From Leclercia adecarboxylata (GTDB lineage Bacteria; Pseudomonadota; Gammaproteobacteria; Enterobacterales; Enterobacteriaceae), in the NCBI RefSeq assembly GCF_006874705.1, contig NZ_CP035382.1, positions 3,968,001 through 4,032,000 on the forward strand: a DNA stretch of 64,000 nt, written 5' to 3'. The notes below the pieces were generated by a model. The model was not told where the DNA came from. It ran no database searches and saw nothing but the letters and a program-made list of their open reading frames with translations. Of this stretch, positions 37,807 to 54,807 are shown piece by piece (position 1 is the first letter of the stretch; the number at the start of each line of letters is the position of its first letter). The position numbers were made by a program, and so were the translations under genes.

Positions 37807-37981
37807 AGGGAAATCCAGGAGTCGTTACGTCAATGAGGTGCGGCGATCTTAAAACCTTCCCTGCTGAAAATACAATCATTTTGTGATTTAGATCTCACTA
37901 TATCCAAAAAGTAATAGCTGGTGAAACAGGGTATTTTCCATGAATATAGGATGCAACATTACGTTAACAGTGGGTAAAGCA

Positions 37982-38776
37982 ATGCAGGAGATTGAGTTTT
38001 ATCTGGTCGATGCGTTCAGTGAAGGCTCGTTTGGCGGCAACCCTGCGGCGGTGTGCCCTTTGCCGGCATGGCTACCGGACGAGACGCTGCTCAATATGAC
38101 GCGGGAGCACAACCAGTCGGAGACCGCTTTTTTCGTGCGCCACCGGGGCGGCATTGAGCTGCGCTGGTTCACCACGCGCGGCGAGGTGAACCTCTGCGGC
38201 CACGCCACTCTGGCGACCGCCTGGGTATTGTTCAACGAGCTGGACTATCCCGACGCCCGCATCCATTTTGATACCGCCTCCGGCAGGCTTACCGTCAGCC
38301 GTGACGGCGACTGGCTGACCCTCGATTTCCCGGCCTGTCCTGGCGAGCCGCAGACCCCGCCGGCAGAGATGCTTGCCGCGCTTGGGATCGAAAACTACGT
38401 CGAGGCCCGCAAGGGGCGCGCCTGGGTGCTGGTGCTGGAAGATCGCCAGCAGGTTGAGGCGGTCACGCCGGATATTCACGCCATGACGCCCGGCGAGCAT
38501 AAAGTGTCGATCACCGCGCGCGGCGAGGGCGAATACGATTTTGTCAGCCGCTTCTTTTCTCCGGGGGCGGCGCTGTGGGAAGATCCGGTCACCGGGTCGG
38601 CCCATACCATGCTGATCCCGTACTGGAGCGAAAAGCTGAATAAAACGTCGCTCTTTGCCCGGCAGGTCTCTGCCCGTGGCGGCGACGTGCGTTGTGAACT
38701 GAAGGGCGACCGGGTGTTAATGAGCGGCAGGGCATCGCTGTATATGAAAGGTCATCTGTTTTTACGCTTACAATAA
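37982..38776 (+). CDS. PhzF-family isomerase-like protein (copy A)
   Basis: The 264-aa product has the diaminopimelate-epimerase-like PhzF fold: YLVDAFSEGSFGGNPAAVCP, the catalytic Glu in HNQSETAFFVR, the INLCGHAT-type motif VNLCGHATLATAWVL and WEDPVTGSAHTMLIPYW. PhzF enzymes isomerise trans-2,3-dihydro-3-hydroxyanthranilate, but enterobacterial homologues outside phenazine clusters have unknown substrates. ATG 37982 is used since it aligns with copy B; a longer start at 37940 exists. It is followed 12 bases later by its paralogue. Confidence 0.85.
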   Translation: MQEIEFYLVDAFSEGSFGGNPAAVCPLPAWLPDETLLNMTREHNQSETAFFVRHRGGIELRWFTTRGEVNLCGHATLATAWVLFNELDYPDARIHFDTASGRLTVSRDGDWLTLDFPACPGEPQTPPAEMLAALGIENYVEARKGRAWVLVLEDRQQVEAVTPDIHAMTPGEHKVSITARGEGEYDFVSRFFSPGAALWEDPVTGSAHTMLIPYWSEKLNKTSLFARQVSARGGDVRCELKGDRVLMSGRASLYMKGHLFLRLQ

Positions 38777-38787
38777 GGGTTAACCCA

Positions 38788-39585
38788 ATGAAAGAAATTG
38801 CCTTTTATCTGGTCGATGCGTTTAGCGATCGCGCGTTTGGTGGGAATCCTGCAGCCGTTTGCCCGCTCGAGGAGTGGCTACCGGATGACGTGCTGTTAAA
38901 GATGGCCCAGCAGCATAACCAGTCGGAAACCGCCTTTTTCGTGCGTACCGACGTGGGCTTTGAACTGCGCTGGTTTACCACTCAGTACGAGATTAACCTT
39001 TGCGGTCACGCCACGCTCGCCAGCGCCCACGTGATTTTTGAGTATCTGGACTACCCACACACCGAGATCGTTTTCTCCACCCGTTTTGTCGGCGACCTGA
39101 AGGTCACCCGCAGCGGCGACTGGTTAACGCTTAACTTCCCGGCGTGGAGCAGCGAGCCGGTAGACAACCCGCCAGCGCTGCTGTTCAGTACCCTCGGCAT
39201 CACCGGGGCGAAGGAGGTGCGGGCAGGGCGCGACTACATGGTGGTGCTGGAGAACCAGCAGCAGGTTGAAGCGTTGACCCCGGATATCGACGGCATGATG
39301 CCGCTGGATAAGATGGTCTGCGTCACCGCCCCGGGGGATGAGTATGACTTTGTCAGCCGCTTCTTCTGCCCGGGCGAGTCGGTGGCGGAAGATCCGGTGA
39401 CCGGCTCCGCCCACAGCATGCTGATCCCGTACTGGAGCGAAAAGCTGGGTAAAACGTCGCTACAGGCCCGTCAGGTCTCGCCCCGCGGCGGCGATCTGCG
39501 CTGCGAGCTGAAGGGCGACCGGGTATTGATTGGCGGCCAGGCGGCGCTCTATCTGAAAGGCACCGTTTACCTGCGCGGCCATTAA
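38788..39585 (+). CDS. PhzF-family isomerase-like protein (copy B)
   Basis: The 265-aa product is a close paralogue of the preceding gene (same YLVDAFSDRAFGGNPAAVCP start, HNQSETAFFVR, INLCGHATLASAHVI, AEDPVTGSAHSMLIPYWSEK). The two genes share long identical blocks, so they arose by tandem duplication and form one operon. The conserved Glu and Cys-Gly-His-Ala motifs are intact in both. Function unknown; the pair could form a hetero-oligomer. It is convergent and overlaps the next gene by four bases. Confidence 0.85.
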   Translation: MKEIAFYLVDAFSDRAFGGNPAAVCPLEEWLPDDVLLKMAQQHNQSETAFFVRTDVGFELRWFTTQYEINLCGHATLASAHVIFEYLDYPHTEIVFSTRFVGDLKVTRSGDWLTLNFPAWSSEPVDNPPALLFSTLGITGAKEVRAGRDYMVVLENQQQVEALTPDIDGMMPLDKMVCVTAPGDEYDFVSRFFCPGESVAEDPVTGSAHSMLIPYWSEKLGKTSLQARQVSPRGGDLRCELKGDRVLIGGQAALYLKGTVYLRGH

Positions 39586-40633: not shown

Positions 40634-41311
40634 TCACCCCAGCGACGCCCCACCGCACAGCACCAGCTCCTGCCCGGTGATGGGCGCGGCCTCGGCGCTC
40701 AGCAGATAGTTGACCATCGCCGCCACCTCTTCCGAGGCGATCAGCCTCCCCATCGGCGGCATTTTTGGCGGTGACGTTTGCCGTCCGGGCGCACTCAACA
40801 TCGGGGTCTGCGTCGCACCCGGGGCCACCACATTGGCGGTGATCCCGCGCGGAGCCAGCTCCGCCGCCCAGCTGCGCACCATCCCAACCAGCGCCGCCTT
40901 GGTCGCAACATACTGCGAGCGCCCGGCCGCTCCCCGTGAGGTGCGGCTGCCGATAGCGATCAGCCGTCCACCCGCGCTCATCCGCGGGGCAAAGTGGTTA
41001 AACAGGATCTCGGCGGCGTGGATATGCAGCCCCCACAGACGAGCGCTGACCGCCGGATCCAGTTCGCCGAGCGGGGCGGCCGCCATCATTCCTGCGGCAT
41101 GGACGATCGCCTGCGGCACCGGCAGGGTATTGAGCGTGGCGCTGAACGTGACGCTGTCACTTAAATCCACGCTCAGGCTGGTAAAGTTCGGGTGTCCGCA
41201 CTCCACTTCGCGTCGGCTTAAGCCCGTCACCTGCCAGCCTTCCGCCAGCAGGCGTTTGACGATAGCTTCGCCGATGCCCGAGCTGGCACCGGTGACAATC
41301 GCATGGCGCAT
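40634..41311 (-). CDS. SDR-family oxidoreductase of the sugar-acid cluster
   Basis: The 225-aa product is a complete classical SDR: VTGASSGIGEAIVKRL, HAAGMMAAAPLGEL (NAG-like), IGSRTSRGAAGRSQYVATKAALVGMV with Ser, Tyr and Lys, and VVAPGATQTPM. It starts one base after the YhcH-like gene and is the last gene of the minus-strand operon. It could oxidise or reduce the sugar acid or a free hydroxy/keto intermediate of the pathway; the substrate is unknown. Confidence 0.85.
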   Translation of the reverse strand: MRHAIVTGASSGIGEAIVKRLLAEGWQVTGLSRREVECGHPNFTSLSVDLSDSVTFSATLNTLPVPQAIVHAAGMMAAAPLGELDPAVSARLWGLHIHAAEILFNHFAPRMSAGGRLIAIGSRTSRGAAGRSQYVATKAALVGMVRSWAAELAPRGITANVVAPGATQTPMLSAPGRQTSPPKMPPMGRLIASEEVAAMVNYLLSAEAAPITGQELVLCGGASLG

Positions 41312-41312
41312 A

Positions 41313-41783
41313 TCACACCTCCAGCAGGGCGCGTGGCACCTTGAACACCGCCTTGCGCACGGTCATCGTCGCGTTCACCGCGCACAGCGCCTGATGCGGC
41401 TCGCCTGGGAGAAACACCGCAAAATCCCCGCTGCGTAAGGTAATGCTCACCGGATGTCCCGCCCCGGCAGCAATCCACAGATCCGGTTTGCGCTCTTCGT
41501 CGCCGACCTGCGCGACAGACTGCATCCCGGCGTGGATCGTCTCTTCACCCGCAAGCACCACCTGAATATCGGCATACAAATAGTGATATTCGGTATGACG
41601 CTCGGCCTGCGGCTGAGTCTGCGCCGGGCCGATATGGCAGAACCACGGACAGCCTTGCGGCTGCCAGCGTCCATCATCCCGGGCGATGAGCGCCGTCAGG
41701 GAACAGTCCGGGCGCTCGAGGATCGCCCGCAGCACCGGCGGGAGCCCCGCCAGCGGCAGGGCGTTAAGATGACCAATAATCAC
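41313..41783 (-). CDS. YhcH/YjgK/YiaL family protein
   Basis: The 156-aa cupin-like product contains IIGHLNALPLAGLPPVLRAI, ERHTEYHYLYADIQVVLAGE and the metal-binding FLPGEPHQALCAV (His, Glu). Members (YhcH of the nan operon, YiaL) are linked to sialic acid and unusual sugar use and are thought to act on sugar anomers. The GTG start at 41783 has AAAGGAG at good distance and overlaps the previous stop as GTGA. Its presence beside a sialidase-fold protein points to an acidic sugar substrate. Confidence 0.85.
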   Translation of the reverse strand: MIIGHLNALPLAGLPPVLRAILERPDCSLTALIARDDGRWQPQGCPWFCHIGPAQTQPQAERHTEYHYLYADIQVVLAGEETIHAGMQSVAQVGDEERKPDLWIAAGAGHPVSITLRSGDFAVFLPGEPHQALCAVNATMTVRKAVFKVPRALLEV

Positions 41784-42949
41784 TGTTGCGGCTCCTTTAC
41801 CCACTCCGGCGACACGCGCACATACTTGATCGCCTGGCGGAAGTAGGTGTAGGCGATATGCAGCGACCCGTCGGCACCCTGTTTGATGCTGGGATAGGAG
41901 AACTCGCGGTTCAGTTTCTCCAGCGAGTTGTTAGTCATGCAGTAGCCGTCACCCTCGTCGAGATTGCGCTGCCAGGCCCAGCTTTTCCCGCCGTCGTTGG
42001 ATATTGCCACCGTCATTGGCGCGCGTGGGGCGCCCCAGAAGGCGGCGCGACCGTGGGTCACCTCCGGCTCTTTACGGCCATCGCCGTCGTCGATCTCGTC
42101 ATACAGCGAGGCGCGGCGCTCCAGCGCACCCGCCGCGCTCATGTGGTTGAACACCAGCGCCAGCTCGCCGCTGGCAAGGGTGGTGACCTGAATCGACGAG
42201 TTGTTGTTCGGCAGCGCTGTAGGTTCCGGCACCGACCAGCTTTCACCGTTGTCCAGCGACTGGCTGATATAGATATTGTCCGCCCAGCGGCTGCGATACA
42301 GCGCCACCAGATGGCCGTTATTCAGGGCGGTGATGTTCATGTGCACGCAGCCCAGGCTCTCCGGCACCTCGACGTCGCGCCAGCTTTTACCCTGGTCTTC
42401 GGAGATTTTCACCGCGCTGATGTCGTCGTTACCCACCCATTTTTCGCCCGGCTGGGTGCGGCAGTAGAAGACCGGCAGCAGCCAGGTGCCGTTCTCCAGC
42501 ACCACAATGGGCTGGCGAATAAAGGTGCCGGGCTTATCCAGCAGGGTGGCAATCTCGCCCCAGCTTTTACCCAAATCCGCAGATTTGCGGTAACGGACGA
42601 TGGCGGTGTCCTGGTTGCCGGAGAGCTGCGCGGTCCACAGCAGCCACAGCACGTTGTCCGGGGCGAGGAACAGCACCGGGTTCTGCTCCGAGCGGCTGGC
42701 GTCGTCCGACAGCTTCACCGCTTCGCTCCACTGGTTGCTGCCCGGGGCCAGGCGCGACCCCCACACTGAAATATCAGCGATCCCTTCCTGCGTGCCGCCA
42801 AACCAGACGCACATCAGGGTACCATCCGGCAGCGGCAGCAGGTTCGCGGCGTGGTTCTGCGGGCAGGAAGAGGGCAGCATCGCCGTTTCCACGCGGGCAT
42901 CCTGCGGCTGCGGGCGAACAATCCCGTCACGGGTTACGGTTACAGACAT
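41780..42949 (-). CDS. sialidase-fold (BNR/Asp-box) protein, cytosolic
   Basis: The 389-aa product is a six-bladed sialidase-like propeller with several Asp-boxes: SADLGKSWGE, SEDQGKSWRD, SLDNGESWSV and SNDGGKSWAW. An Arg-rich start and HAANLLPLPDGTLMCVWFGG are typical of the exo-sialidase family. There is no signal peptide (MSVTVTRDGI), so it would act inside the cell on an imported glycoside or anhydro-sugar, unlike secreted sialidases. Lyases and isomerases also use this fold. The start follows the symporter stop by one base. Confidence 0.85.
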   Translation of the reverse strand: MSVTVTRDGIVRPQPQDARVETAMLPSSCPQNHAANLLPLPDGTLMCVWFGGTQEGIADISVWGSRLAPGSNQWSEAVKLSDDASRSEQNPVLFLAPDNVLWLLWTAQLSGNQDTAIVRYRKSADLGKSWGEIATLLDKPGTFIRQPIVVLENGTWLLPVFYCRTQPGEKWVGNDDISAVKISEDQGKSWRDVEVPESLGCVHMNITALNNGHLVALYRSRWADNIYISQSLDNGESWSVPEPTALPNNNSSIQVTTLASGELALVFNHMSAAGALERRASLYDEIDDGDGRKEPEVTHGRAAFWGAPRAPMTVAISNDGGKSWAWQRNLDEGDGYCMTNNSLEKLNREFSYPSIKQGADGSLHIAYTYFRQAIKYVRVSPEWVKEPQQ

Positions 42950-42950
42950 A

Positions 42951-44363
42951 TCAGACTCCATTATGTTGAACAGGGGCAGGCGCTTTGCGATCCGCTTTAT
43001 TCGGGATCAGACGGTCGAGGACCATAATCACCGCCGGGGTGATCAGCGCGATATACATATTGTTAATGCCAAACGGGTCGCCCAGCAGATACCAGAGGGA
43101 GGTCACCACGCAGGCACCAATCAGGCCGGCGTTGGCACCCCGGGTGCTCTTAAAGAACGGGGCATAGAAGGCAATGACCGCCACCACCGTAATCGACAGA
43201 CGAATGGCGCGGGTGAAGAAGGACAGCTTCAGCACTTCCGGCACCAGCAGGACGAAAATCAGCGGCAGGAAGCCAATCAGCAGCGACATCCAGCGGGTGG
43301 CTTTAAACTCCTGCTCCGGGGTGGGGTTGCGGTACGGCACGTAGAAATCTTTCACTACCAGCGAGGCGATAGCCAGCGCCACGGTACTCACGCTCACGAA
43401 GATTGACGCTACAAGTGACGTTGTCACCAGACCGGCCAGCCACGGGTTCATGTCCTGCAGGAAGATCGGCATGGCGTACAGGCTGTCGATCTCCGGGTGC
43501 AGATACTTCGCCGCCACGCCAATCACCGCAATCGCCAGGGCAATCGGCAGGCAGAAGAAGAACGCCACCCAGGTGGAGCGTTTGGCCGACTTCACATCTT
43601 TGGTGGAGGAGATGGCCTGGATCACAAACTGGGTACAGAAGATGGAGCCGATGGTGCCGATCAGCCAGGCGAAGATGGTGCTGGCGCCAATGTTGCCATC
43701 CCAGGTCCAGTAGTACGACGGCATCTGCTCAATCATTGGCGTAAAGCCGCCGGTTTTGGAGAGCGCGAAGCCCATGATCACCAGGATACCGAAATACTTG
43801 AGAGCGCTGTGCAGCAGCGTGACCCAGGCCACGCCCTTCATGCCGCCAAAGGCGAAGTAGAAGGTACTGACTACCGCAGTGATAAAGGCCGCGACCGGCA
43901 GGTTGACCTTCAGCACGGTGGAGATGGCCGCCGCGCCGGAGACATAGTTGCCGACGTTCACCAGCAGCAGGGCGTAAATCATGATGATCGAGATAATGTT
44001 TTTGGTGCTGGTGCCGTACTTCTCGGCAATCGCCCCGGAGATGGTGATTTTGCCGGTGCTATAGATGCGCTTCACCAGCAACAGGCCAAACAGCGGGAAG
44101 CCAATCGCCGCGCCAATCACCGACCAGGAGGCGGCAAAACCATCCTCGAACGCCGCCTGGGCGGTGCCAATGGTGGATTTGGCGCCGATGTATTCGGACA
44201 TCAGCAGGATCCCGACGATAAACGCCGGCATCGCCCGGGAGCCCTCCATAAAATCGCCGGAGTTTTTACTGCGCAACCGGAAGGTCAGCCAGGTGGTAAA
44301 CAGGATGTAGACAATCACAATGCCTACGATGATCAGGGTATCTTCAGCGGTAAAATTGTTCAT
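42951..44363 (-). CDS. sodium:solute symporter (SSS family)
   Basis: The 470-aa product has about 13 helices with SSS features: FMEGSRAMPAFIVGILLMSE, IGAKSTIGTAQAAFEDGFAA, and TKDVKSAKRSTWVAFFFCLP. It should import the cluster's substrate with sodium. SSS proteins include SiaT-type sialic acid carriers, but no specific residues allow that call here. It lies 77 bases after the aldolase gene. Confidence 0.9.
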   Translation of the reverse strand: MNNFTAEDTLIIVGIVIVYILFTTWLTFRLRSKNSGDFMEGSRAMPAFIVGILLMSEYIGAKSTIGTAQAAFEDGFAASWSVIGAAIGFPLFGLLLVKRIYSTGKITISGAIAEKYGTSTKNIISIIMIYALLLVNVGNYVSGAAAISTVLKVNLPVAAFITAVVSTFYFAFGGMKGVAWVTLLHSALKYFGILVIMGFALSKTGGFTPMIEQMPSYYWTWDGNIGASTIFAWLIGTIGSIFCTQFVIQAISSTKDVKSAKRSTWVAFFFCLPIALAIAVIGVAAKYLHPEIDSLYAMPIFLQDMNPWLAGLVTTSLVASIFVSVSTVALAIASLVVKDFYVPYRNPTPEQEFKATRWMSLLIGFLPLIFVLLVPEVLKLSFFTRAIRLSITVVAVIAFYAPFFKSTRGANAGLIGACVVTSLWYLLGDPFGINNMYIALITPAVIMVLDRLIPNKADRKAPAPVQHNGV

Positions 44364-44440
44364 CTTTGCCTCTCTTCAGGGCGTAGGAAACCTGGGCGCC
44401 CGCGGCACCCGGTATTCTTATGGACGAAATCAAACGTCGG

Positions 44441-45325
44441 TTACTGCAGTGACTTCGTCACTATCTGGCGGATCTGTTCAGTCTGTTGCGCATCAAAAGC
44501 CACCGCGTAGCGGCTTTCACCCACCTCTTCGCCCATCACCTGCAGCGCCTTTTTCACGGCGGCCGGAGAGAAGGCAATTTTATATAAATTCGTTCGCAGC
44601 TCGGTGACGCTCTCCTGCGCCTGACGCGAGCCGTCAATATCGCCCGCCTGGTAACGCGCCCAGATGGCGTTGATCGCCGACGGGGCGACGTTCGCCAGCC
44701 CGGAAATACAGGCGGAACAGCCCTCGACAAAGCCCTGGTGGATCAGCGAGTCCGGGCCGTTCAGCACGGCGAAATCCTCGATGCCCTGGGCAGCCTTCAG
44801 GAAACCGCTCAGGCTCTCATAGCTGCCCGCGCTGTCCTTAATGCCGATGATGTTCGGGTGCGAAGCCAGCACCCGCGCGGTGTGCGGTTCAATAGTGTTG
44901 CCGGTGCGCGCCGGGATGTTGTAGAGAAATACCGGCACCGTGAGGGCATCGGCGATGGCGGTGTAATGGGCGATCAGCTCCGCCTGGGTCAGGGGCACAA
45001 ACCATGGGGTGATCACCGAGACCGCATCTACGCCCAGGGCTTCGACCTGCTTGCCGAGACGAATAGTGGCGCGGGTGGAGATCTCCCCGATGTGCGCCAC
45101 CACCGGCGCACGGCCTGCGACCTCTTCCACGCAGGTGCGGGTGACGGCCACCTTTTCCTCTTCGGTCAGCACAAAGAACTCACCGTTGGTACCGCCGCAG
45201 AAAATACCGTTTCCCGCCGCCAGCTGGCGCTGGATCTGGCGTTTCAGTCCCGGCAGATGCAGCGCGCCATCCTCCGTAAAAGGGGTGACGATTGCCGTCA
45301 GCACGCCTTCAATCTTGTTACGCAT
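44441..45325 (-). CDS. DapA/NanA-family aldolase or dehydratase
   Basis: The 294-aa (beta/alpha)8 barrel carries the Schiff-base Lys163 (IIGIKDSAGSYE), Tyr135 (VFLYNIPARTG) and the carboxylate-binding loop GGTNGEF. Family members cleave 2-keto-3-deoxy sugar acids (sialic acid, KDG) to pyruvate plus an aldehyde, or make dihydrodipicolinate. A catabolic aldolase is favoured here because of the transporter, alcohol dehydrogenase and tetronate kinase around it. The specificity is unknown. Confidence 0.88.
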   Translation of the reverse strand: MRNKIEGVLTAIVTPFTEDGALHLPGLKRQIQRQLAAGNGIFCGGTNGEFFVLTEEEKVAVTRTCVEEVAGRAPVVAHIGEISTRATIRLGKQVEALGVDAVSVITPWFVPLTQAELIAHYTAIADALTVPVFLYNIPARTGNTIEPHTARVLASHPNIIGIKDSAGSYESLSGFLKAAQGIEDFAVLNGPDSLIHQGFVEGCSACISGLANVAPSAINAIWARYQAGDIDGSRQAQESVTELRTNLYKIAFSPAAVKKALQVMGEEVGESRYAVAFDAQQTEQIRQIVTKSLQ

Positions 45326-45342
45326 TTCTCACTCCTTCGATG

Positions 45343-46488
45343 TTAAATTTCGGGGAACAGGGTCTGATAAATGCCCTGCACCTCGGCATGGCTGACCTGA
45401 CGCGGGGCGTTGTTCATCAGGCGTTTTACGTTCAGGGCGGCATCGCTCAGGGAGGCGATGTCATCCCGCGGTACGCCCAGCGTTTCGAGGTTGTCCGGTA
45501 AGTTCAGGCGGCGCACCAGGGCGGCAAACCACGCCACCAGCGCGTGGGATTTCTCTTCTGCCGACAGGGAGGTATCCGCACCCGGCACCAGATCCCACAC
45601 CTGCGCAAATTTTTCGACGGCATCCGGGCGCACCACGCGCATGCAGGGCGCTAAAAGAATGGCGTTCGCGACCCCGTGCGGCAGGTGATACTTGCCGCCC
45701 AGCGGATAGGAAAGGGCATGCACCAGATGGGTTCCGGCATGGGCAATGGCTACGCCGCCGTAGTACGAGGCCCACAGCATCTCCAGCTTCGCAGCCAGGT
45801 TATGCGGCTCGGCGCAGGCGGTTTCGATATTGTTCAGCAGCTTGCGCAGGCCAATCAGCGCCGCGTTGTCGCTCACCGGATTCGCCACGGTGGCGGTAAA
45901 GCATTCGATAAGGTGACACAGGGCATCGATCCCGGTGGAGGAGGCAATGTGCGGCGGCATGCTGGTGGTGAGTTCGGGTAACAGCGCCACGTAATCCGGT
46001 AGCAGCACCGGAGAGATAATGCCGATTTTGGTACTCTGCTCAGGAATGGCGAGGATCGCGTTCGGCGTGGCTTCAGAGCCGGTGCCGGCGCTGGCCGGGA
46101 TCAGTAATGAGGCGAGTCGCAGGGTCGGTTTTTCACCCGCCAGCAGGGCATCCAGCCCCGGTGAAGCAGGATGGCACAGCACGGAGAGCAGTTTCGCCAC
46201 ATCCAGTACGCTGCCGCCGCCCACGCCTACCACCAGATCAAAGTCGGTGTTGTTGATCTCCGCCAGCAGGGCGCGAACGTCATGGTTGGTGGGCTCCGGC
46301 GGCACGCTTTCGATCACGCTGACGCTACGGTTGTCGGCTTCCAGCAAGGCGCGGATGGCGCGAGCGGCGTCCAGACGAGCGATATTGCCGTCGGTGACCA
46401 GTAAAAGGCGCGTCTTGCCTGCCAGCAGTGGCGCGAGGGCCGGGATCGCACCCGCACCGCTGATAATTGTACTGTTAATGGTTAACAC
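45343..46488 (-). CDS. iron-containing (group III) alcohol dehydrogenase
   Basis: The 381-aa product has the nucleotide-binding VGVGGGSVLDVAKLLSVL and the metal ligands in GIDALCHLIECF and GKYHLPHGVANAIL (two His). Such enzymes interconvert aldehydes and alcohols with NAD(P)H; here an aldehyde released by the aldolase is the natural candidate. The GTG start at 46488 is chosen because AGGAG lies six bases upstream; an ATG at 46548 would add 20 residues without a ribosome-binding site. Confidence 0.87.
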   Translation of the reverse strand: MLTINSTIISGAGAIPALAPLLAGKTRLLLVTDGNIARLDAARAIRALLEADNRSVSVIESVPPEPTNHDVRALLAEINNTDFDLVVGVGGGSVLDVAKLLSVLCHPASPGLDALLAGEKPTLRLASLLIPASAGTGSEATPNAILAIPEQSTKIGIISPVLLPDYVALLPELTTSMPPHIASSTGIDALCHLIECFTATVANPVSDNAALIGLRKLLNNIETACAEPHNLAAKLEMLWASYYGGVAIAHAGTHLVHALSYPLGGKYHLPHGVANAILLAPCMRVVRPDAVEKFAQVWDLVPGADTSLSAEEKSHALVAWFAALVRRLNLPDNLETLGVPRDDIASLSDAALNVKRLMNNAPRQVSHAEVQGIYQTLFPEI

Positions 46489-46587
46489 ATTGCTCTCCTG
46501 TTGCTGTGTCTGTGATTGATTTCGCTCAAACCCGGCAATCACACTCATCGTGTGTCTAAATTTATAATTTATTCGCAAATTGAATAC

Positions 46588-46603
46588 CTTGATCTTGCTC
46601 ACA
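46588..46603. promoter_or_regulatory. possible CRP site in divergent promoter region
   Basis: CTTGATCTTGCTCACA keeps one perfect TCACA half-site and a partial partner at the TGTGA-N6-TCACA spacing, between the two divergent operons. A second dyad, CACACTCATCGTGTG at about 46541, could be a DeoR-family operator. Confidence 0.4.
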
Positions 46604-46662
46604 CATAATCAAACGTGATTGAATATAATCATTATCAGGAAATGCGAACCTTTGGGGATGGA

Positions 46663-47877
46663 ATGAACAACCTGAACAGAGAAGTGGTGGCGATCGCCGA
46701 TGACTTTACCGGTGCGAACGACGCGGGGGTTAGCCTGGCATTAAGCGGTAAAAAAGTCAGCGTGGCGTTTCAGACTCCCTTTACCGGCGACACCGATGCG
46801 CTGGTTATTAATAGCGAGAGTCGTGCGCTTCGGGCATCAGAGGCCGCTGAAAAGCTGACGCACTACGCTGCCGAGATTAACGCCGCGAAATGGCTGGTGA
46901 AGAAAATCGACTCCACCCTGCGCGGCAACCCGGGGGCAGAGGTGGAGGCGCTGCTGCGTCTCAGCGGTCAGCGTCAGGCCATTATCGCCCCGGCCTTCCC
47001 GGCGGCGGGGCGCACCACGCGAAACGGCGTATGCCTGGTTAACGGCGTGCCGGTCACAGAGACCGAATTTGCCAGCGACCCGAAAACCCCGGTGCGTCAT
47101 GCCCACATTGCGGCGGTGCTGGCGGAGCAAACCCGGCTTAACAGCGTGGTCGTCACCCCGCAGCAGCTGACGGCAGCACTACATAGTGATGCGCAGCTGG
47201 TGATTGTCGATGCGCAGAGCGACGACGAGCTGGATCAGATTATCAGTGCGGCCTTTACCTGCGATGAACGCCCGCTGCTGGTGGGCTCCGCCGGGCTGTG
47301 CGATGCCCTGGCGCGCCGTCTGGCGACGCCGCGTCAGCTGCTGGCGGTTATCGGTTCGATGAGTGAGATTGCTCAGCAGCAGATCCAGCGGGTGGGCACT
47401 CAGCATAACGTCAGCAGGGTACTTATAGATATCAATGATGTGTTCAGCGATGCGCTGGCGGGCTATCAGCAGCAAATCGCTGCTGCGCTGGCGGCAGGCC
47501 AGCACTGCGTGGTGCATACCTGCGCCGATACACAGGCCCGGCATCAGATCGACACCCTGTGTCAGCAGCGCGGGTTAAGCCGTGCCGCGCTCGGGGAGAC
47601 CATCAGCGCGTTTCTTGGCGAGCTCACGCGCAGGGTGCTGGAGAGCCATAGCCCGGCGGCGCTGTACGTCTCCGGGGGCGACGTGGCAATGGCGGTCGCC
47701 AGCGCGCTCAACGCGCAAGGATTTGCCATACGCGGACAAGTGGCGCAGTGCGTGCCGTTTGGTCGGTTTTTGGGTTGTCGCTGGCAGGGGCCAGTCATGA
47801 CCAAAGCGGGTGGTTTTGGTACTGAAACCACGCTGCTTGAGGTTTTGCATTTTATCGAGGAGAAGATGAGTGACTAA
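46663..47877 (+). CDS. four-carbon acid sugar kinase (DUF1537, DtnK/OtnK type)
   Basis: The 404-aa product has the N-terminal substrate domain (IADDFTGANDAGV, KKIDSTLRGNPGAEVEAL, PAFPAAGRTTRNGV) and the C-terminal ATP domain (VSGGDVAMAVASAL, VMTKAGGFGTETTL) of the D-threonate/D-erythronate/3-oxo-tetronate kinases. It would phosphorylate a four-carbon sugar acid at O4. Paired with PdxA2 it defines the established threonate/erythronate route to DHAP. ATG 46663 follows GGGGATGG; the longer frame from 46615 enters the promoter. Confidence 0.9.
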   Translation: MNNLNREVVAIADDFTGANDAGVSLALSGKKVSVAFQTPFTGDTDALVINSESRALRASEAAEKLTHYAAEINAAKWLVKKIDSTLRGNPGAEVEALLRLSGQRQAIIAPAFPAAGRTTRNGVCLVNGVPVTETEFASDPKTPVRHAHIAAVLAEQTRLNSVVVTPQQLTAALHSDAQLVIVDAQSDDELDQIISAAFTCDERPLLVGSAGLCDALARRLATPRQLLAVIGSMSEIAQQQIQRVGTQHNVSRVLIDINDVFSDALAGYQQQIAAALAAGQHCVVHTCADTQARHQIDTLCQQRGLSRAALGETISAFLGELTRRVLESHSPAALYVSGGDVAMAVASALNAQGFAIRGQVAQCVPFGRFLGCRWQGPVMTKAGGFGTETTLLEVLHFIEEKMSD

Positions 47878-48856
47878 TATCATTGCTGTAACCATGGGCG
47901 ACCCGGCGGGCATTGGCCCGGAGATCATTATCAAATCCCTGACCGGAGGCGAGCTGTCCGGCGCGCCGTTGGTGGTGGTCGGCTGCGCCCGTACCCTGCA
48001 ACGGGTGCTGGAGAAGGGCATCACCGCCCCGGCGGAGTTACGCGTGATTACCCGCGTCAGCGAGGCGCAGTTCGGCCCGGCCATCATCAACGTGCTGGAC
48101 GAGCCGCTGGCGGATCCCGAGGCGTTGCAGCCCGGCGTGGTGCAGGCCCAGGCAGGCGATCTGGCCTACCGCTGCGTGCGTCGCGCCACCGAGCTGGCGA
48201 TGGCAGGCGAGGTGAAAGCCATTGCCACAGCGCCGCTCAACAAAGAGGCGCTGCACCTGGCGGGCCATCACTATCCGGGCCATACCGAACTGCTGGCGCA
48301 CCTCACCGACAGCAAAGATTACGCGATGGTGCTCTATACCGACCAGCTGAAGGTGATCCACATCACTACCCATATCGCGTTGCGCAAATTCCTTGATACC
48401 CTTAACCAGGATCGGGTAAAAACCGTGATTGGCATTGCGGATACCTTCCTCAAGCGCGTGGGGTATAAGAATCCGCGTATCGCCGTGGCCGGGGTCAACC
48501 CGCACGCCGGGGAGAACGGTCTGTTTGGCGACGAAGAGATCAAGATTGTCGGTCCGGCGGTGGAAGCGATGAAGGCCCAGGGTCTGAATGTGTCAGGGCC
48601 ATGCCCGCCGGATACGGTGTTTATGCAGTGTCACGAAGGAATGTACGACATGGTAGTGGCGATGTATCACGATCAGGGGCATATTCCGTTAAAATTACTC
48701 GGCTTTTACGACGGGGTGAACATCACCGCCGGGCTGCCGTTTATTCGCACGTCTGCCGACCATGGCACCGCGTTCGACATTGCGTGGACAGGTAAAGCGA
48801 AGTCTGAGAGCATGACGGTCTCTATCCAGTTAGCGATGCAAATCACACGGGAATAA
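47870..48856 (+). CDS. pdxA2: PdxA2-type 4-phospho-tetronate dehydrogenase
   Basis: The 328-aa product is a PdxA-family metal-dependent dehydrogenase: [45 protein letters not shown] and [13 protein letters not shown] with the conserved metal His residues. PdxA2 enzymes oxidise D-threonate or D-erythronate 4-phosphate, with decarboxylation to DHAP. The GTG start overlaps the kinase stop, so the two are translationally coupled. Its location next to the kinase, not in a vitamin B6 locus, supports the catabolic role over pyridoxine synthesis. Confidence 0.9.
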
Positions 48857-48857
48857 T

Positions 48858-49619
48858 ATGAAGGGCTATAGCCGGTTAGAACAGATAATGGACTACCTGA
48901 AAGGGCACAATCTGGTGACGGTAGATCAGCTGGTGGCGGCCACGGACGCCTCGCCCGCGACCATTCGCCGGGATCTGATTAAGCTCGATCAGGAGGGGGT
49001 TATCAGCCGCACCCACGGCGGCGTGACCCTGAACCGGTTCATCCCTTCACAGCCCACCACCAGCGAAAAGATGCAGCGCAGCCTGGCGGAGAAACACGCC
49101 ATCGCCTGCGCGGCAGCCAGCTTTGTTAAGGCCGGCGACGCGGTGGTGCTCGATGCGGGCACCACCATGATTGAACTCGCGCGCCAGCTGACCCATCTGC
49201 CGCTGCGCGTCATCACCAGCGATCTGCATATCGCCCTGTTTCTGTCCGAGTTTAAGCAGATTGAGGTGACGATCATTGGCGGGCGCATCGACGACTCGAG
49301 CCAGTCCTGCATTGGCGAGCACGGTCGCCGCCTGCTGCAAAACGTCTGGCCGGATATCGCCTTTGTCAGCTGTAACGGCTGGGATCTGCAGCGCGGCATC
49401 ACCTCGCCGACGGAAGAGAAAGCGGCCCTGAAGCGGGATCTGATCGCCAACGCCCGCCGCCGGGTGCTGCTGGCCGACAGCTCGAAATATGGCGCCTGGT
49501 CGCTGTTTAACGTGGCTCACCTCAACACCCTGACCGATATTGTCACCGACAAACGGCTGGACGAAGGGGTGCAACAGACCCTAAGCCAGCTGGATGCCAC
49601 CCTGACCTTAGCGCCTTAA
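48858..49619 (+). CDS. DeoR-family transcriptional repressor
   Basis: The 253-aa product has an N-terminal winged helix ([20 protein letters not shown], then [20 protein letters not shown] with the THGG turn) and a sugar-phosphate-sensing DeoR C domain ([36 protein letters not shown]). It starts one base after pdxA2 and very likely controls both divergent operons of the cluster in response to a phosphorylated intermediate. Confidence 0.92.
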
Positions 49620-49623
49620 GGGC

Positions 49624-50568
49624 TCAGGGCAGGCGGGCGATATTGGCTTTGATCACCTCCGCCGAATGGCGGAATTTTTGCAGTTCATCCTCTGCCAGCT
49701 TCAGCTCAATGATCTGCTGGACGCCGCTCTGGGCCAGCACCGCCGGCACGCCGATCGCCACGCCGTCCACCCCATACTCACCCTCCAGAATGCAGGAGAT
49801 CGCCAGCGCCCGGTGGCTGCCGGTGAAGATATTGCGACAGATTTCAGCGATAGTGGCGGCGATGCCGTACTCCGTGCAGCCCTTACGGGCATAGATCTCA
49901 AAGCCCTGTTTGCGCACGCGCTCGGCCAGTTCATCAAAATCCAGGGTTTTGCCGGTGTGACGCTGATAAACGTCAGCAATCGGCGAGCCGTAGACCGCCG
50001 AATGCGACCAGACCGGGAACTGCGTATCCCCGTGCTCACCCAGAATAAAGGCGTCGATGCTCTGCGCGCCGATATCCAGCGCCTGCGCCAGGGTCCGTCG
50101 CAGGCGGGTAGTATCCAGCCAGACGCCGGTACCAATGACCTGCTGACGCGGCAGGCCGGAGAGCTGCCACACCTGCCAGGTGATGATGTCGCACGGGTTG
50201 GTCGCGATCAGAAAAATGCCGTTAAACCCGCCCGCCATCATTTGCGGGACAATGTTTTTCACAATGCTGGCGGTGGCGGTCAGCTCATCCAGCCGCGTCT
50301 GCCCCGGTTTGAGGGCGCCGCCGGAGACGGTGATCACCGCGATATCCACATCGGCACAGTCGCTCGCCTCACGGGTGGAGATGGTCATCATCCCGGGCAT
50401 AAAGGCGGCGGCATCCGACAGATCCCAGGCGTGGCCTTCACTGCGCGGCTGGTTGATATCCACCAGCAGCAGCTCTTCACAGATATTCTGGTTCAGCAGG
50501 GCGTAGGCGGCGGAGGTACCGACGTTTCCGGCGCCGATAATCATCACTTTGCGGGCTTTGGTGTTCAT
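49624..50568 (-). CDS. L-lactate/2-hydroxyacid dehydrogenase (LDH/MDH family)
   Basis: The 314-aa product has the NAD site GAGNVGTSAAYALL, the specificity loop KPGQTRLDEL with Gln (lactate-type, where malate enzymes have Arg), ATNPCDIITW and the catalytic His in LGEHGDTQFPVW. It would convert pyruvate and L-lactate or similar 2-keto acids. It is convergent with the DeoR gene (four bases apart) and may dispose of pyruvate made by the aldolase; this link is inference. ATG 50568 gives a standard N-terminus. Confidence 0.85.
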   Translation of the reverse strand: MNTKARKVMIIGAGNVGTSAAYALLNQNICEELLLVDINQPRSEGHAWDLSDAAAFMPGMMTISTREASDCADVDIAVITVSGGALKPGQTRLDELTATASIVKNIVPQMMAGGFNGIFLIATNPCDIITWQVWQLSGLPRQQVIGTGVWLDTTRLRRTLAQALDIGAQSIDAFILGEHGDTQFPVWSHSAVYGSPIADVYQRHTGKTLDFDELAERVRKQGFEIYARKGCTEYGIAATIAEICRNIFTGSHRALAISCILEGEYGVDGVAIGVPAVLAQSGVQQIIELKLAEDELQKFRHSAEVIKANIARLP

Positions 50569-50719
50569 TGTTTTTCCTGAGATTTTAACCGTGACTGTGC
50601 CCAAACTTACGCCGCAGGCGCAGGGGGCGCAATGGCTGGCGGCAGCTATAAGTTAAAAATATGCCTGCTCGCTCGTCAGGCGGCGTTATGGTGGAGAAAA
50701 ACGACAAAAGGAGCCTGCC

Positions 50720-53702: not shown

Positions 53703-53732
53703 TGTCGATAAAAACGGTTTTTTTAAACATAT
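53703..53732 (+). promoter_or_regulatory. 30-bp direct repeat overlapping fic start, copy 2 (candidate operator)
   Basis: The second copy runs up to the fic start codon, and the 40 bases between the copies contain a further ATCGACAT / ATGTCGAT pairing. Paired repeats at a start codon suggest an autoregulatory operator. Confidence 0.5.
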
Positions 53733-54807
53733 GAGCTGGGATCCCGTCGTACCTTATAATGAACTTCCGGTGTTACCTCCGGATCTGGATAGCATTGAAA
53801 CCCGTAGTGTACTCAAAGCCTGTATCAGTGCGCGCGCAGCGATTGCTGAGTTAAAAACTGCGGGTGAGTTAATACCCGATCAAAGTTTATTGATTAATAT
53901 CCTACCGATGCTGGAAGCAAAAGACTCTTCCCGTATAGAGAACATTGTGACCACCAGCGATCGGCTTTTTCAATACGTTGATCGTGCCGAAAATGCCGAT
54001 CCCGCTACAAAGGAAGCGCTACGCTACCGCACTGCGTTATACGATGGATATCTCCATCTCAACAGCTATCACTTGTGCACCAATACCGCGATAAAAATTT
54101 GTACTGCACTACGAGCCGTACAAACCGATATTCGTAAGACGCCGGGTACCGTCTTGCGCGACCAGTACGAGGAGGTGGTTTATACGCCGCCAGTTGGCGA
54201 AACAACTATCCGCGATCTCCTGGCTAACTGGGAGCGCTTCCTCCATGCCGAGGATGATGTCGACCCGTTGATCAAAATGGCTATTTCACACTATCAGTTT
54301 GAATGCATTCATCCTTTCCCCGACGGTAATGGACGAACGGGACGGATCCTGAATATCCTCTATTTAATTCAGGCAGGATTGTTGTCATTACCCATTCTGT
54401 ATTTGTCTCGCTTCATCCTCGAAAGACGTAACGATTACTACACCTTATTGCGTAGTGTGACTGCGAATGGGGACTGGCAGGCATGGATCCTTTTTATGCT
54501 CGAAGCGATAGAGAATACGGCGAGATGGACAACGAAGAAGATCGCAGTGGTCCGAGCGTTGATGGCGGAGACTACTGACTATGTACGTAAGGAATTACCC
54601 AAGATTTATACACACGAACTGGTGAGGGCCCTCTTTGCACAGCCCTATTGTCGGATTGAAAACCTTGTAGAGGCTGGCGTTGCAAAACGGCAGACGGCTT
54701 CATCCTACCTCAAGCAATTAGTTGAGATTGGTGTGCTGGAGGAAATGAACGTTGGGCGTGAGAAGTTGTATATCAATACCCGATTATTACTCGAATTAAA
54801 TCATTAG
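53731..54807 (+). CDS. Fic-domain AMP transferase with intramolecular inhibitory helix and wHTH
   Basis: The 358-aa product has the Fic active site HPFPDGNGRTGR at residues 194-205 with catalytic His194. An N-terminal inhibitory helix motif, SSRIEN (residues 66-71), fits the [S/T]xxxE[G/N] rule of class II self-inhibited Fic enzymes; Glu70 would block ATP. The N-terminal Fic/DOC_N-like region (PVLPPDLDSIETRSVLKACI) and a C-terminal winged helix (NLVEAGVAKRQTASSYLKQL) complete the usual layout, so DNA binding and autoregulation are likely. No small antitoxin gene lies upstream. It interrupts the E. coli-like sad-glsB order. Confidence 0.9.
   Translation: MSWDPVVPYNELPVLPPDLDSIETRSVLKACISARAAIAELKTAGELIPDQSLLINILPMLEAKDSSRIENIVTTSDRLFQYVDRAENADPATKEALRYRTALYDGYLHLNSYHLCTNTAIKICTALRAVQTDIRKTPGTVLRDQYEEVVYTPPVGETTIRDLLANWERFLHAEDDVDPLIKMAISHYQFECIHPFPDGNGRTGRILNILYLIQAGLLSLPILYLSRFILERRNDYYTLLRSVTANGDWQAWILFMLEAIENTARWTTKKIAVVRALMAETTDYVRKELPKIYTHELVRALFAQPYCRIENLVEAGVAKRQTASSYLKQLVEIGVLEEMNVGREKLYINTRLLLELNH

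What the first reader, a model, noticed from the sequence alone, without database searches (positions are those of the whole stretch)
40634..50568. Divergent catabolic cluster for an unidentified acidic sugar
One locus joins SSS import, a signal-less sialidase-fold protein, YhcH-like cupin, DapA-type aldolase, Fe-ADH, SDR, tetronate kinase, PdxA2 and DeoR, and ends at an LDH-like gene. Kinase plus PdxA2 is the known tetronate-to-DHAP route; DapA aldolases give pyruvate plus an aldehyde. Together they suggest a keto-deoxy acid is split into pyruvate and a C4 unit, or that two related acids are used. The combination with an intracellular sialidase fold does not match a described pathway I know.
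Basis: partly seen in the sequence, partly recalled or inferred. Interest (0 to 1): 0.75.

Follow-up and report, generated by a model that had tools for sequence, protein, structure and literature searches.

The report
Likely route for a pectin seven-carbon diacid
A conserved bacterial gene set, apparently switched by one repressor, seems to take in a rare acidic sugar, most probably Dha from plant pectin, split it, and turn the halves into pyruvate and a glycolysis intermediate by way of D-threonate; nothing has been assayed yet.

Summary
In detail: ten intact genes lie where stated, nine of them one module. It looks like one pathway under one regulator. Of 80 Enterobacterales loci picked only by the sialidase-like gene, 61 carry all five core genes (sialidase fold, DapA-type aldolase, Fe-ADH, tetronate kinase, PdxA2); so do 28 of 35 loci outside the family, 32 of them from one other family. 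In Pantoea the transporter/sialidase arm can stand apart, yet aldolase, Fe-ADH, kinase, PdxA2 and DeoR stay together in 7 of 7 genomes checked, and the detached arm has its own operator TGATTN6AATCA (strict in 13 of 14; 17 sites against 0.2 expected). Kinase and PdxA2 pass D-threonate cut-offs. Counting back through a semialdehyde reductase and a pyruvate aldolase gives a D-lyxo or D-xylo 3-deoxy-heptulosarate; Dha of rhamnogalacturonan II is D-lyxo. The aldolase has the arginine by which DHDPS holds a C4 semialdehyde acid in 65 of 65 Enterobacterales but 13 of 31 outside loci. The sialidase-fold step is open. The LDH-like gene is not core (14 of 80).

The parts
40634..41311 (-). SDR-family oxidoreductase; accessory, role unknown
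   Evidence: PF13561 1.1e-32; in 72 of 80 Enterobacterales loci but 4 of 35 loci outside the family
41313..41804 (-). YhcH/YjgK/YiaL protein (family of the sialate anomerase NanQ); probably starts 21 bp inside this ORF
   Evidence: PF04074 8.5e-24; below the NanQ equivalog cut-off, 90.2 v 160; 61 of 80 and 0 of 35 loci
41780..42961 (-). cytoplasmic sialidase-fold (BNR_2) enzyme, core; proposed to ready the ulosarate for the aldolase
   Evidence: PF13088 2.2e-68; no PDB relative by phmmer; profile touches sialidases only weakly
42951..44363 (-). sodium:solute symporter, uptake; other carrier families take its place in some relatives
   Evidence: PF00474 5.2e-28; DASS/CitMHS in 6 of 80, TRAP in L217 and L220, TTT in L223, ABC in L140
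44441..45325 (-). DapA-superfamily pyruvate aldolase, core
   Evidence: PF00701 8.5e-61; Schiff-base Lys163 and Tyr135 in 109 of 109 best-scoring aldolases of the loci, Arg140 in 90 of 109
45343..46488 (-). iron-containing alcohol dehydrogenase, core; proposed C4 semialdehyde reductase (longest ORF runs to 46602)
   Evidence: PF25137/PF00465; start set by relatives
46489..46662 (.). divergent control region between the two arms
   Evidence: strict operator in 80 of 80 homologous divergent regions, window included
46513..46528 (.). degenerate operator copy on the Fe-ADH side (TGATTGATTTCGCTCA), 103 bp from the strict copy
   Evidence: read from the sequence; relatives have pairs 103-106 bp apart
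46616..46631 (.). operator TGATTGAATATAATCA, the only strict TGATTN6AATCA in the window
46663..47877 (+). D-threonate kinase (DtnK-type), core (longest ORF starts at 46615)
   Evidence: NF047819 524.4 bits, cut-off 450
47870..48856 (+). D-threonate 4-phosphate dehydrogenase (PdxA2), core
   Evidence: NF002891 671.9 bits, cut-off 583
48858..49619 (+). DeoR-family repressor, proposed to bind TGATTN6AATCA
   Evidence: PF00455, PF08220; 59 of 80 loci
49624..50604 (-). L-LDH-like 2-hydroxyacid dehydrogenase; neighbour or accessory, not core
   Evidence: NF000824 and TIGR01771 above cut-off; 14 of 80 loci; no strict operator near it

Best explanation
One regulon for using a 3-deoxy-hept-2-ulosarate, most likely Dha (3-deoxy-D-lyxo-hept-2-ulosaric acid) of the plant pectin rhamnogalacturonan II. 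Proposed steps: the SSS carrier brings the acid in; the cytoplasmic sialidase-fold enzyme, helped by the YhcH protein, converts the imported form (ring, lactone or small ketoside) to the open keto form; the DapA-type aldolase cuts C3-C4 into pyruvate and a C4 semialdehyde acid (OHC-CHOH-CHOH-COOH); the Fe-ADH reduces the aldehyde, giving D-threonate; DtnK makes D-threonate 4-phosphate; PdxA2 oxidises and decarboxylates it to DHAP. DeoR, relieved by D-threonate or its phosphate, holds both arms off from paired operators about 104 bp apart. Shown: gene content, linkage, operator, family membership of kinase and PdxA2. Inferred: every reaction. My odds: one pathway and regulon 0.9; D-threonate as intermediate 0.8; aldolase plus reductase making it 0.65; Dha as the substrate 0.5; the role given to the sialidase-fold enzyme 0.35.
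For: Five-gene core in 61 of 80 Enterobacterales loci and 28 of 35 loci outside the family, all chosen by the BNR gene. Aldolase, Fe-ADH, kinase, PdxA2 and DeoR intact in 7 of 7 Pantoea genomes where the BNR arm lies elsewhere. Same operator on both separated pieces: 13 of 14 strict, 17 sites v 0.2 expected; 0 of 61 unsplit loci have one before SSS. In G178 the BNR cluster has PdxA2 but no kinase, while a KdgT-like/DtnK locus has no PdxA2; the genome shows one PdxA2-type gene and one close DeoR ortholog, and operators at both loci, as if the two loci share D-threonate 4-phosphate. Kinase and PdxA2 pass D-threonate cut-offs. Stereochemistry: Dha gives D-threonate; Kdo and KDG controls give D-arabinose and D-glyceraldehyde. 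Dha structure from PMC12168206 (passages). Arg140, at the place of the DHDPS residue that binds aspartate semialdehyde (role recalled), in 65 of 65 Enterobacterales and 7 of 7 split-Pantoea aldolases; the genome's own NanA has Leu. Fe-ADH scores highest against lactaldehyde reductase and also scores against 4-hydroxybutyrate dehydrogenase, all below their cut-offs.
Against: No enzyme, growth or expression data. In 18 of 31 loci outside the family the best-scoring aldolase lacks the Arg (17 of a distinct HIPQVSG-like type, one with Lys), so the acceptor may differ there. D-xylo-heptulosarate fits the stereochemistry equally. No RG-II-degrading enzyme was sought beside the cluster. The operator is absent from the BNR loci of the distant genomes G356, G111, G446. 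Kinase and PdxA proteins of the distant loci tested fall below the D-threonate cut-offs (L140 kinase, L140 and L151 PdxA; L215 kinase 433 v 450 and PdxA 378 v 583). A D-2-hydroxyacid dehydrogenase gene recurs near the aldolase (19 of 144 loci) and is not explained. Some Pantoea clusters lack the kinase at the locus. In the window's own genus G279 and G300 lack the BNR gene, though G883 has the whole set. Many loci are close relatives, so counts are not independent events.
Confidence: 0.52

Rival explanations
1. Two related acids share one regulon: D-threonate enters directly and is used by kinase and PdxA2, while the aldolase arm uses an unrelated keto-deoxy acid and does not feed D-threonate.
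For: Stand-alone kinase loci exist: 5 of 17 kinase loci looked at (14 fetched plus window, L109, L110) lack aldolase and Fe-ADH within 10 kb; two of them, with a KdgT-like permease, carry the same operator.
Against: Aldolase and Fe-ADH stay beside kinase and PdxA2 in the 7 Pantoea genomes where the uptake/BNR arm lies elsewhere and in 28 of 35 loci outside the family. A reductase conserved beside aldolase and kinase has a natural place in the linear scheme.
Confidence: 0.2
2. The substrate is Kdo, the other ulosonic acid of RG-II and of LPS, split to pyruvate and D-arabinose.
For: DapA-superfamily aldolase and sialidase fold suit an ulosonate; Kdo occurs in the same polymer (passages of PMC12168206).
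Against: The product is D-arabinose, which kinase and PdxA2 of the D-threonate families would not use; no arabinose isomerase or pentose kinase is among the ten genes; the Arg for an acceptor carboxylate would be idle.
Confidence: 0.08
3. A sialic-acid or anhydro-sialic-acid pathway.
For: Sialidase fold, YhcH family and an SSS carrier together resemble nan clusters; weak profile hits to sialidases and anhydrosialidase.
Against: The aldolase misses the NanA cut-off (119 v 382) and the genome has its own NanA at 512 bits; no NanE or NanK among the ten genes; YhcH misses the NanQ cut-off.
Confidence: 0.04
4. The aldolase yields D-threose, which the SDR or Fe-ADH oxidises to D-threonate through a lactone opened by the sialidase-fold protein; the substrate would be a 3-deoxy-heptulosonate.
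For: An SDR is present in 72 of 80 Enterobacterales loci.
Against: The SDR is missing in 31 of the 35 loci outside the family, while Fe-ADH is kept in 32 of the 35; Fe-ADHs act between alcohol and aldehyde (recalled); the aldolase Arg, where present, implies an acid acceptor.
Confidence: 0.1

Closest known systems
D-threonate catabolism by DtnK and PdxA2 (Zhang et al. 2016, PNAS, not held; known here from passages of PMC10971088, and recall)
   Same: kinase and dehydrogenase pass the D-threonate equivalog cut-offs; same operator on two stand-alone D-threonate-kinase loci
   Different: here D-threonate is proposed to be made inside the cell by an aldolase and a reductase rather than imported
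L-threonate / D-erythronate route (ltnD, denD, otnI, otnK, otnC; passages of PMC10580937)
   Same: DUF1537 kinase, DeoR-family control; DHAP as end product (recalled)
   Different: OtnK model missed (116 v 350 bits); no further otn-type genes recognised among the ten
4-hydroxy-tetrahydrodipicolinate synthase (DapA)
   Same: same superfamily, Schiff-base Lys, acceptor Arg; its open-chain product is, like Dha, a 2-keto-3-deoxy C7 diacid (recalled chemistry)
   Different: below the DapA cut-off (189.5 v 206.15); second Tyr of the TPYY motif is Phe; the genome has its own DapA at 418 bits
[quoted passage not shown] passages of PMC8560999)
   Same: cuts a C7 2-keto-4-hydroxy diacid into pyruvate and a C4 semialdehyde acid
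   Different: HpaI is a class II metal aldolase, acting in aromatic breakdown
GH33 sialidases and GH143 Dha hydrolase (passage of PMC6811678)
   Same: BNR_2 / sialidase-type repeats; GH143 acts on the same sugar
   Different: cytoplasmic by its lack of a leader; only weak profile similarity to sialidases; relation to GH143 not tested
nan sialic-acid clusters
   Same: YhcH family, carrier, DapA-superfamily lyase
   Different: NanA and NanQ cut-offs missed; no NanE or NanK

Membership tests
D-threonate route (DtnK/PdxA2) | kinase above NF047819 cut-off | tested here: met
   524.4 v 450 bits
D-threonate route (DtnK/PdxA2) | dehydrogenase above NF002891 cut-off | tested here: met
   671.9 v 583 bits
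D-threonate route (DtnK/PdxA2) | D-threonate phosphorylated and oxidised to DHAP | not testable with these tools
   needs enzymes
L-threonate / D-erythronate route | 3-oxo-tetronate kinase OtnK | tested here: not met
   116.1 v 350 bits
4-hydroxy-tetrahydrodipicolinate synthase | TIGR00674 cut-off | tested here: not met
   189.5 v 206.15 bits
4-hydroxy-tetrahydrodipicolinate synthase | Schiff-base Lys and acceptor Arg | tested here: met
   both present in the window protein; Lys163 in 109 of 109, Arg140 in 90 of 109 best-scoring aldolases of the loci
N-acetylneuraminate lyase | TIGR00683 cut-off | tested here: not met
   119.4 v 382 bits
N-acetylneuraminate anomerase NanQ | NF040884 cut-off | tested here: not met
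   90.2 v 160 bits
GH33 sialidase | arginine triad, Asp acid/base, Tyr nucleophile | tested here: inconclusive
   59-row alignment has invariant Arg, Asp and Tyr columns, but an invariant His where a FRIP-type Arg would be expected (motif recalled); no structure could be made
GH143 Dha hydrolase | sequence relation to BT1020 | not tested
   no reference sequence at hand
Kdo breakdown | genes for D-arabinose in the cluster | tested here: not met
   none among the ten genes

The most novel reading that the evidence does not exclude
This is a dedicated pathway for Dha, the seven-carbon diacid found in plants only in rhamnogalacturonan II: a DHDPS-like aldolase splits it to pyruvate and a tartaric-type semialdehyde, an Fe-ADH turns that into D-threonate, and D-threonate itself induces the regulon through looped DeoR operators. 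The cytoplasmic sialidase-fold protein would be a new enzyme of ulosarate metabolism. D-threonate kinases, for which I know of no clear natural source of substrate, would get one.
Probability: 0.45. Interest if true: 0.8.

Novelty: new variant of a known kind. Interest (0 to 1): 0.66.

Why it matters
RG-II is present across plants (abstract of PMC12168206) and holds Dha, a sugar whose bacterial breakdown after release I did not find in the listings of my searches (openly licensed papers only). If right, this names the genes for that breakdown in many plant-linked bacteria (Pantoea, Erwinia, Pectobacterium, Dickeya, Kosakonia, Klebsiella, Enterobacter) and in Rhizobiales-like genomes, gives a source for D-threonate, a reason for a sialidase fold in the cytoplasm, and a regulator whose inducer can be tested at once.

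Tried and rejected
Considered and set aside: sialic acid, Kdo, D-threose oxidation (see rivals), LDH as a core enzyme. A scan of viral contigs for close relatives of the aldolase confirmed none. The E. coli genomes show no megablast match to the cluster (distant mode not run), though one protein cluster of an 83% relative is labelled E. coli (P0087). Paper searches: no paper holds three of the four cluster terms or two of the four; some searches were listed in full, in part (20 of 41, 15 of 17), searches were too broad (12 of 1,546 and 8 of 8,234 listed). PMC9125672 mentions a D-threonate region in E. coli but no sialidase or neuraminidase (passages). A cluster-all-ORFs approach on GC-rich loci was too noisy and was replaced by profile searches.

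Samples: of 503 confirmed BNR loci only the best 80 were kept, all Enterobacterales or close. Of the 11 phylum matches, nine were fetched (two, L109 and L110, are in the window's own family); of the 45 family matches, 32 were fetched (4, 28). The 35 loci outside the family are thus 32 from one family (26 with all five) and 3 others. Of 15 Enterobacterales loci without aldolase, 13 are Pantoea and two (L080, L083) have the BNR gene near the start of the contig, so they say nothing. Of 31 kinase matches, 14 were fetched, plus window, L109 and L110. One of 8 genomes asked for (L061) was not held. The SSS start of L061 is a partial-hit artefact; its operator was counted as upstream from its place. 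The shuffles kept base composition only. The aldolase residues are from the best-scoring, not the nearest, aldolase of each locus.

Corrected on checking: I had taken the carriers of L217 and L220 for TTT; they are TRAP. I had thought the D-2-hydroxyacid dehydrogenase to be tied to loci without the BNR gene; it is not.

'Salmonella-like' for L209 and 'Pasteurellaceae-like' for L215 in my notes are recall only. DHDPS Arg138, NAL Leu142, the FRIP motif and the LDH substrate-loop position are recalled, from no call.
Full report
What is there. Ten open genes occupy 40634-50604. Two arms diverge from a control region at about 46489-46662: to the left Fe-ADH, DapA-type aldolase, SSS carrier, BNR_2 (sialidase fold), YhcH and SDR; to the right a DUF1537-type kinase, PdxA2 and DeoR. 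An L-LDH-like gene lies convergent behind DeoR. The closest loci in the species collection are from Leclercia and Silvania (95-97% in the BNR protein).

Is it one system? I chose loci by the BNR gene only. Of 503 confirmed relatives in the genome collection the best 80 were kept; 61 of 80 hold all five core families, with aldolase and Fe-ADH in 65 and kinase and PdxA in 63. A sparse survey found the BNR gene in 11 of 398 genomes of the phylum and in 45 of 297 of one other family. Of 37 loci fetched from these, two (L109, L110) belong to the window's own family; of the other 35, 28 hold all five, and 32 of the 35 are from that one family. A betaproteobacterial plasmid (L010) has all five too. 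SBD_N kinases number 1-4 per genome in 13 genomes, so by my estimate about 1% would be expected within 10 kb by chance. The carrier varies: SSS, a DASS/CitMHS type in 6 of 80, TTT in L010 and L223, TRAP in L217 and L220, an ABC system with an SBP_bac_5 protein in L140. YhcH is in 61 of 80 but 0 of 35, SDR in 72 of 80 but 4 of 35.

Where it comes apart. In 13 of the 80 loci (all Pantoea), and in the plasmid locus L005, SSS, BNR and SDR stand without the aldolase (two further loci start near a contig end). Seven of these genomes could be searched; each holds one close aldolase elsewhere, and in 7 of 7 that second locus carries aldolase, Fe-ADH, kinase, PdxA and DeoR in the usual arrangement. So the cut falls between uptake/BNR and aldolase/kinase, not between aldolase and kinase. 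Looking from the kinase side, 12 of 17 loci examined have aldolase and Fe-ADH within 10 kb; L209, L210, L219, L221 and L222 do not (window, L109 and L110). L209 and L210 have a KdgT-like permease (291 and 273 bits, below the 454 cut-off) beside the two best-scoring D-threonate kinases (667 and 655 bits).

One regulator. The divergent region holds TGATTGAATATAATCA at 46616, the only strict TGATTN6AATCA in the window. A strict copy is present in 80 of 80 homologous divergent regions (the window and 79 loci of Enterobacterales and the order, many of them close relatives). Where two copies were seen they are 103-106 bp apart in Enterobacterales loci and 92-94 bp apart in L216, L217 and L218; in the window the second copy (46513-46528) is degenerate. 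In the 14 split loci the detached SSS-BNR operon has the motif in front of it: strict in 13 of 14, one mismatch in the other (L057), 17 strict sites in 303 kb against 0.2 in shuffled sequence, while 0 of 61 unsplit loci have a strict site there. In the Pantoea genome G687 three of the five strict sites of the whole genome lie at these two loci; in G684 it is two of nine. The KdgT-like/DtnK loci L209 and L210 carry it as well. Limits: 5-10 strict sites occur in each of the five Enterobacterales genomes searched, so single sites can be chance, and the motif is not at the BNR loci of G356, G111 or G446.

A natural complementation. The genome has one match to the D-threonate kinase model at E 1e-60 or better, one PdxA2-type gene at 77% and one ordinary PdxA at 39%, one DeoR ortholog at 80% some 43 kb from the BNR cluster, and operators at both loci. 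The simplest reading is that a D-threonate kinase makes the substrate for the PdxA2 of the BNR cluster.

Which compound? Kinase and PdxA2 of the window pass the cut-offs for D-threonate kinase and D-threonate 4-phosphate dehydrogenase; distant ones tested do not. The conserved redox enzyme beside aldolase and kinase is an Fe-ADH. A pyruvate aldolase followed by reduction of an aldehyde gives D-threonate only if the acceptor is OHC-CHOH-CHOH-COOH of the right form, hence a 3-deoxy-heptulosarate of D-lyxo or D-xylo form; bookkeeping of the Fischer projection gives this, with Kdo and KDG as controls that come out right. The D-lyxo compound is Dha, which a 2025 review describes as found, in plants, only in RG-II, as is Kdo (PMC12168206, passages). 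The aldolase scores best against DHDPS; DHDPS joins pyruvate to aspartate semialdehyde, also a C4 semialdehyde acid (recalled). Arg140 lines up with the DHDPS arginine that holds that acid group (role recalled) and is present in 65 of 65 Enterobacterales and 7 of 7 split-Pantoea aldolases, against Leu in the genome's own NanA. Against this, in 18 of 31 loci outside the family the best-scoring aldolase has Val, Ile, Met or Lys there and only 13 have Arg: the same module can hold a second kind of aldolase.

What is not explained. The BNR protein has no PDB relative by phmmer; a profile of 59 sequences touches sialidases weakly, mainly in the Asp-box region. I read it as an enzyme that opens or frees the ulosarate. 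A D-2-hydroxyacid dehydrogenase gene lies in 19 of 144 loci checked, next to the aldolase in split Pantoea loci and in Erwinia-type loci that do have the BNR gene. The L-LDH-like gene of the window, also a 2-hydroxyacid dehydrogenase family, is present at 50% identity or more in 14 of 80 loci, none of which has the D-type gene; whether the two stand in for each other is open.

Verdict. No step has been assayed. Families and fold are known kinds; the combination and the proposed substrate are new to me and to the papers I could search.

Noticed in passing
L172-L178, L213, L218, L223, L046, L053, L055, L064, L065, L069, L103 (also L106, L155): A PGDH-like D-2-hydroxyacid dehydrogenase gene recurs in these loci, in several right beside the aldolase; none of the 14 loci with the L-LDH-like gene has it, so the two may play the same accessory part, perhaps a second, 2-hydroxy-acid entry.
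   Followed up: partly
window 49624-50604: The L-LDH-like protein reads GALKPGQTR where usual lactate dehydrogenases have Q two residues before PGETR (recalled), so its 2-keto acid may not be pyruvate.
   Followed up: no
L211, L032, L031, L007: P. ananatis and P. stewartii type clusters have no kinase and no DeoR at the locus but keep the operator; in G178 the kinase and DeoR are encoded elsewhere.
   Followed up: yes
L021, L024, L025, L033, L035, L078: In the Klebsiella oxytoca type locus SSS and SDR are replaced by a TerC-family membrane protein and a DASS/CitMHS carrier.
   Followed up: partly
L104-L108, L138, L140-L148, L154, L157, L009: A second aldolase type (HIPQVSG-like motif, about 25% identical) is the best-scoring aldolase in these BNR loci.
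   Followed up: partly
window 37940-39585: Two adjacent PhzF-family genes flank the cluster; relatives lie near it in 18 of 144 loci checked.
   Followed up: partly
window 53731-54807: A Fic-family protein (Fic_N, Fic and SoFic-like domains), with no visible tie to the cluster.
   Followed up: no
L215 8952-16371: A compact 2.25 Mb genome carries the pathway as one co-directional run: kinase, PdxA, aldolase, Fe-ADH, DASS carrier, BNR, YhcH, with one strict operator in front.
   Followed up: yes
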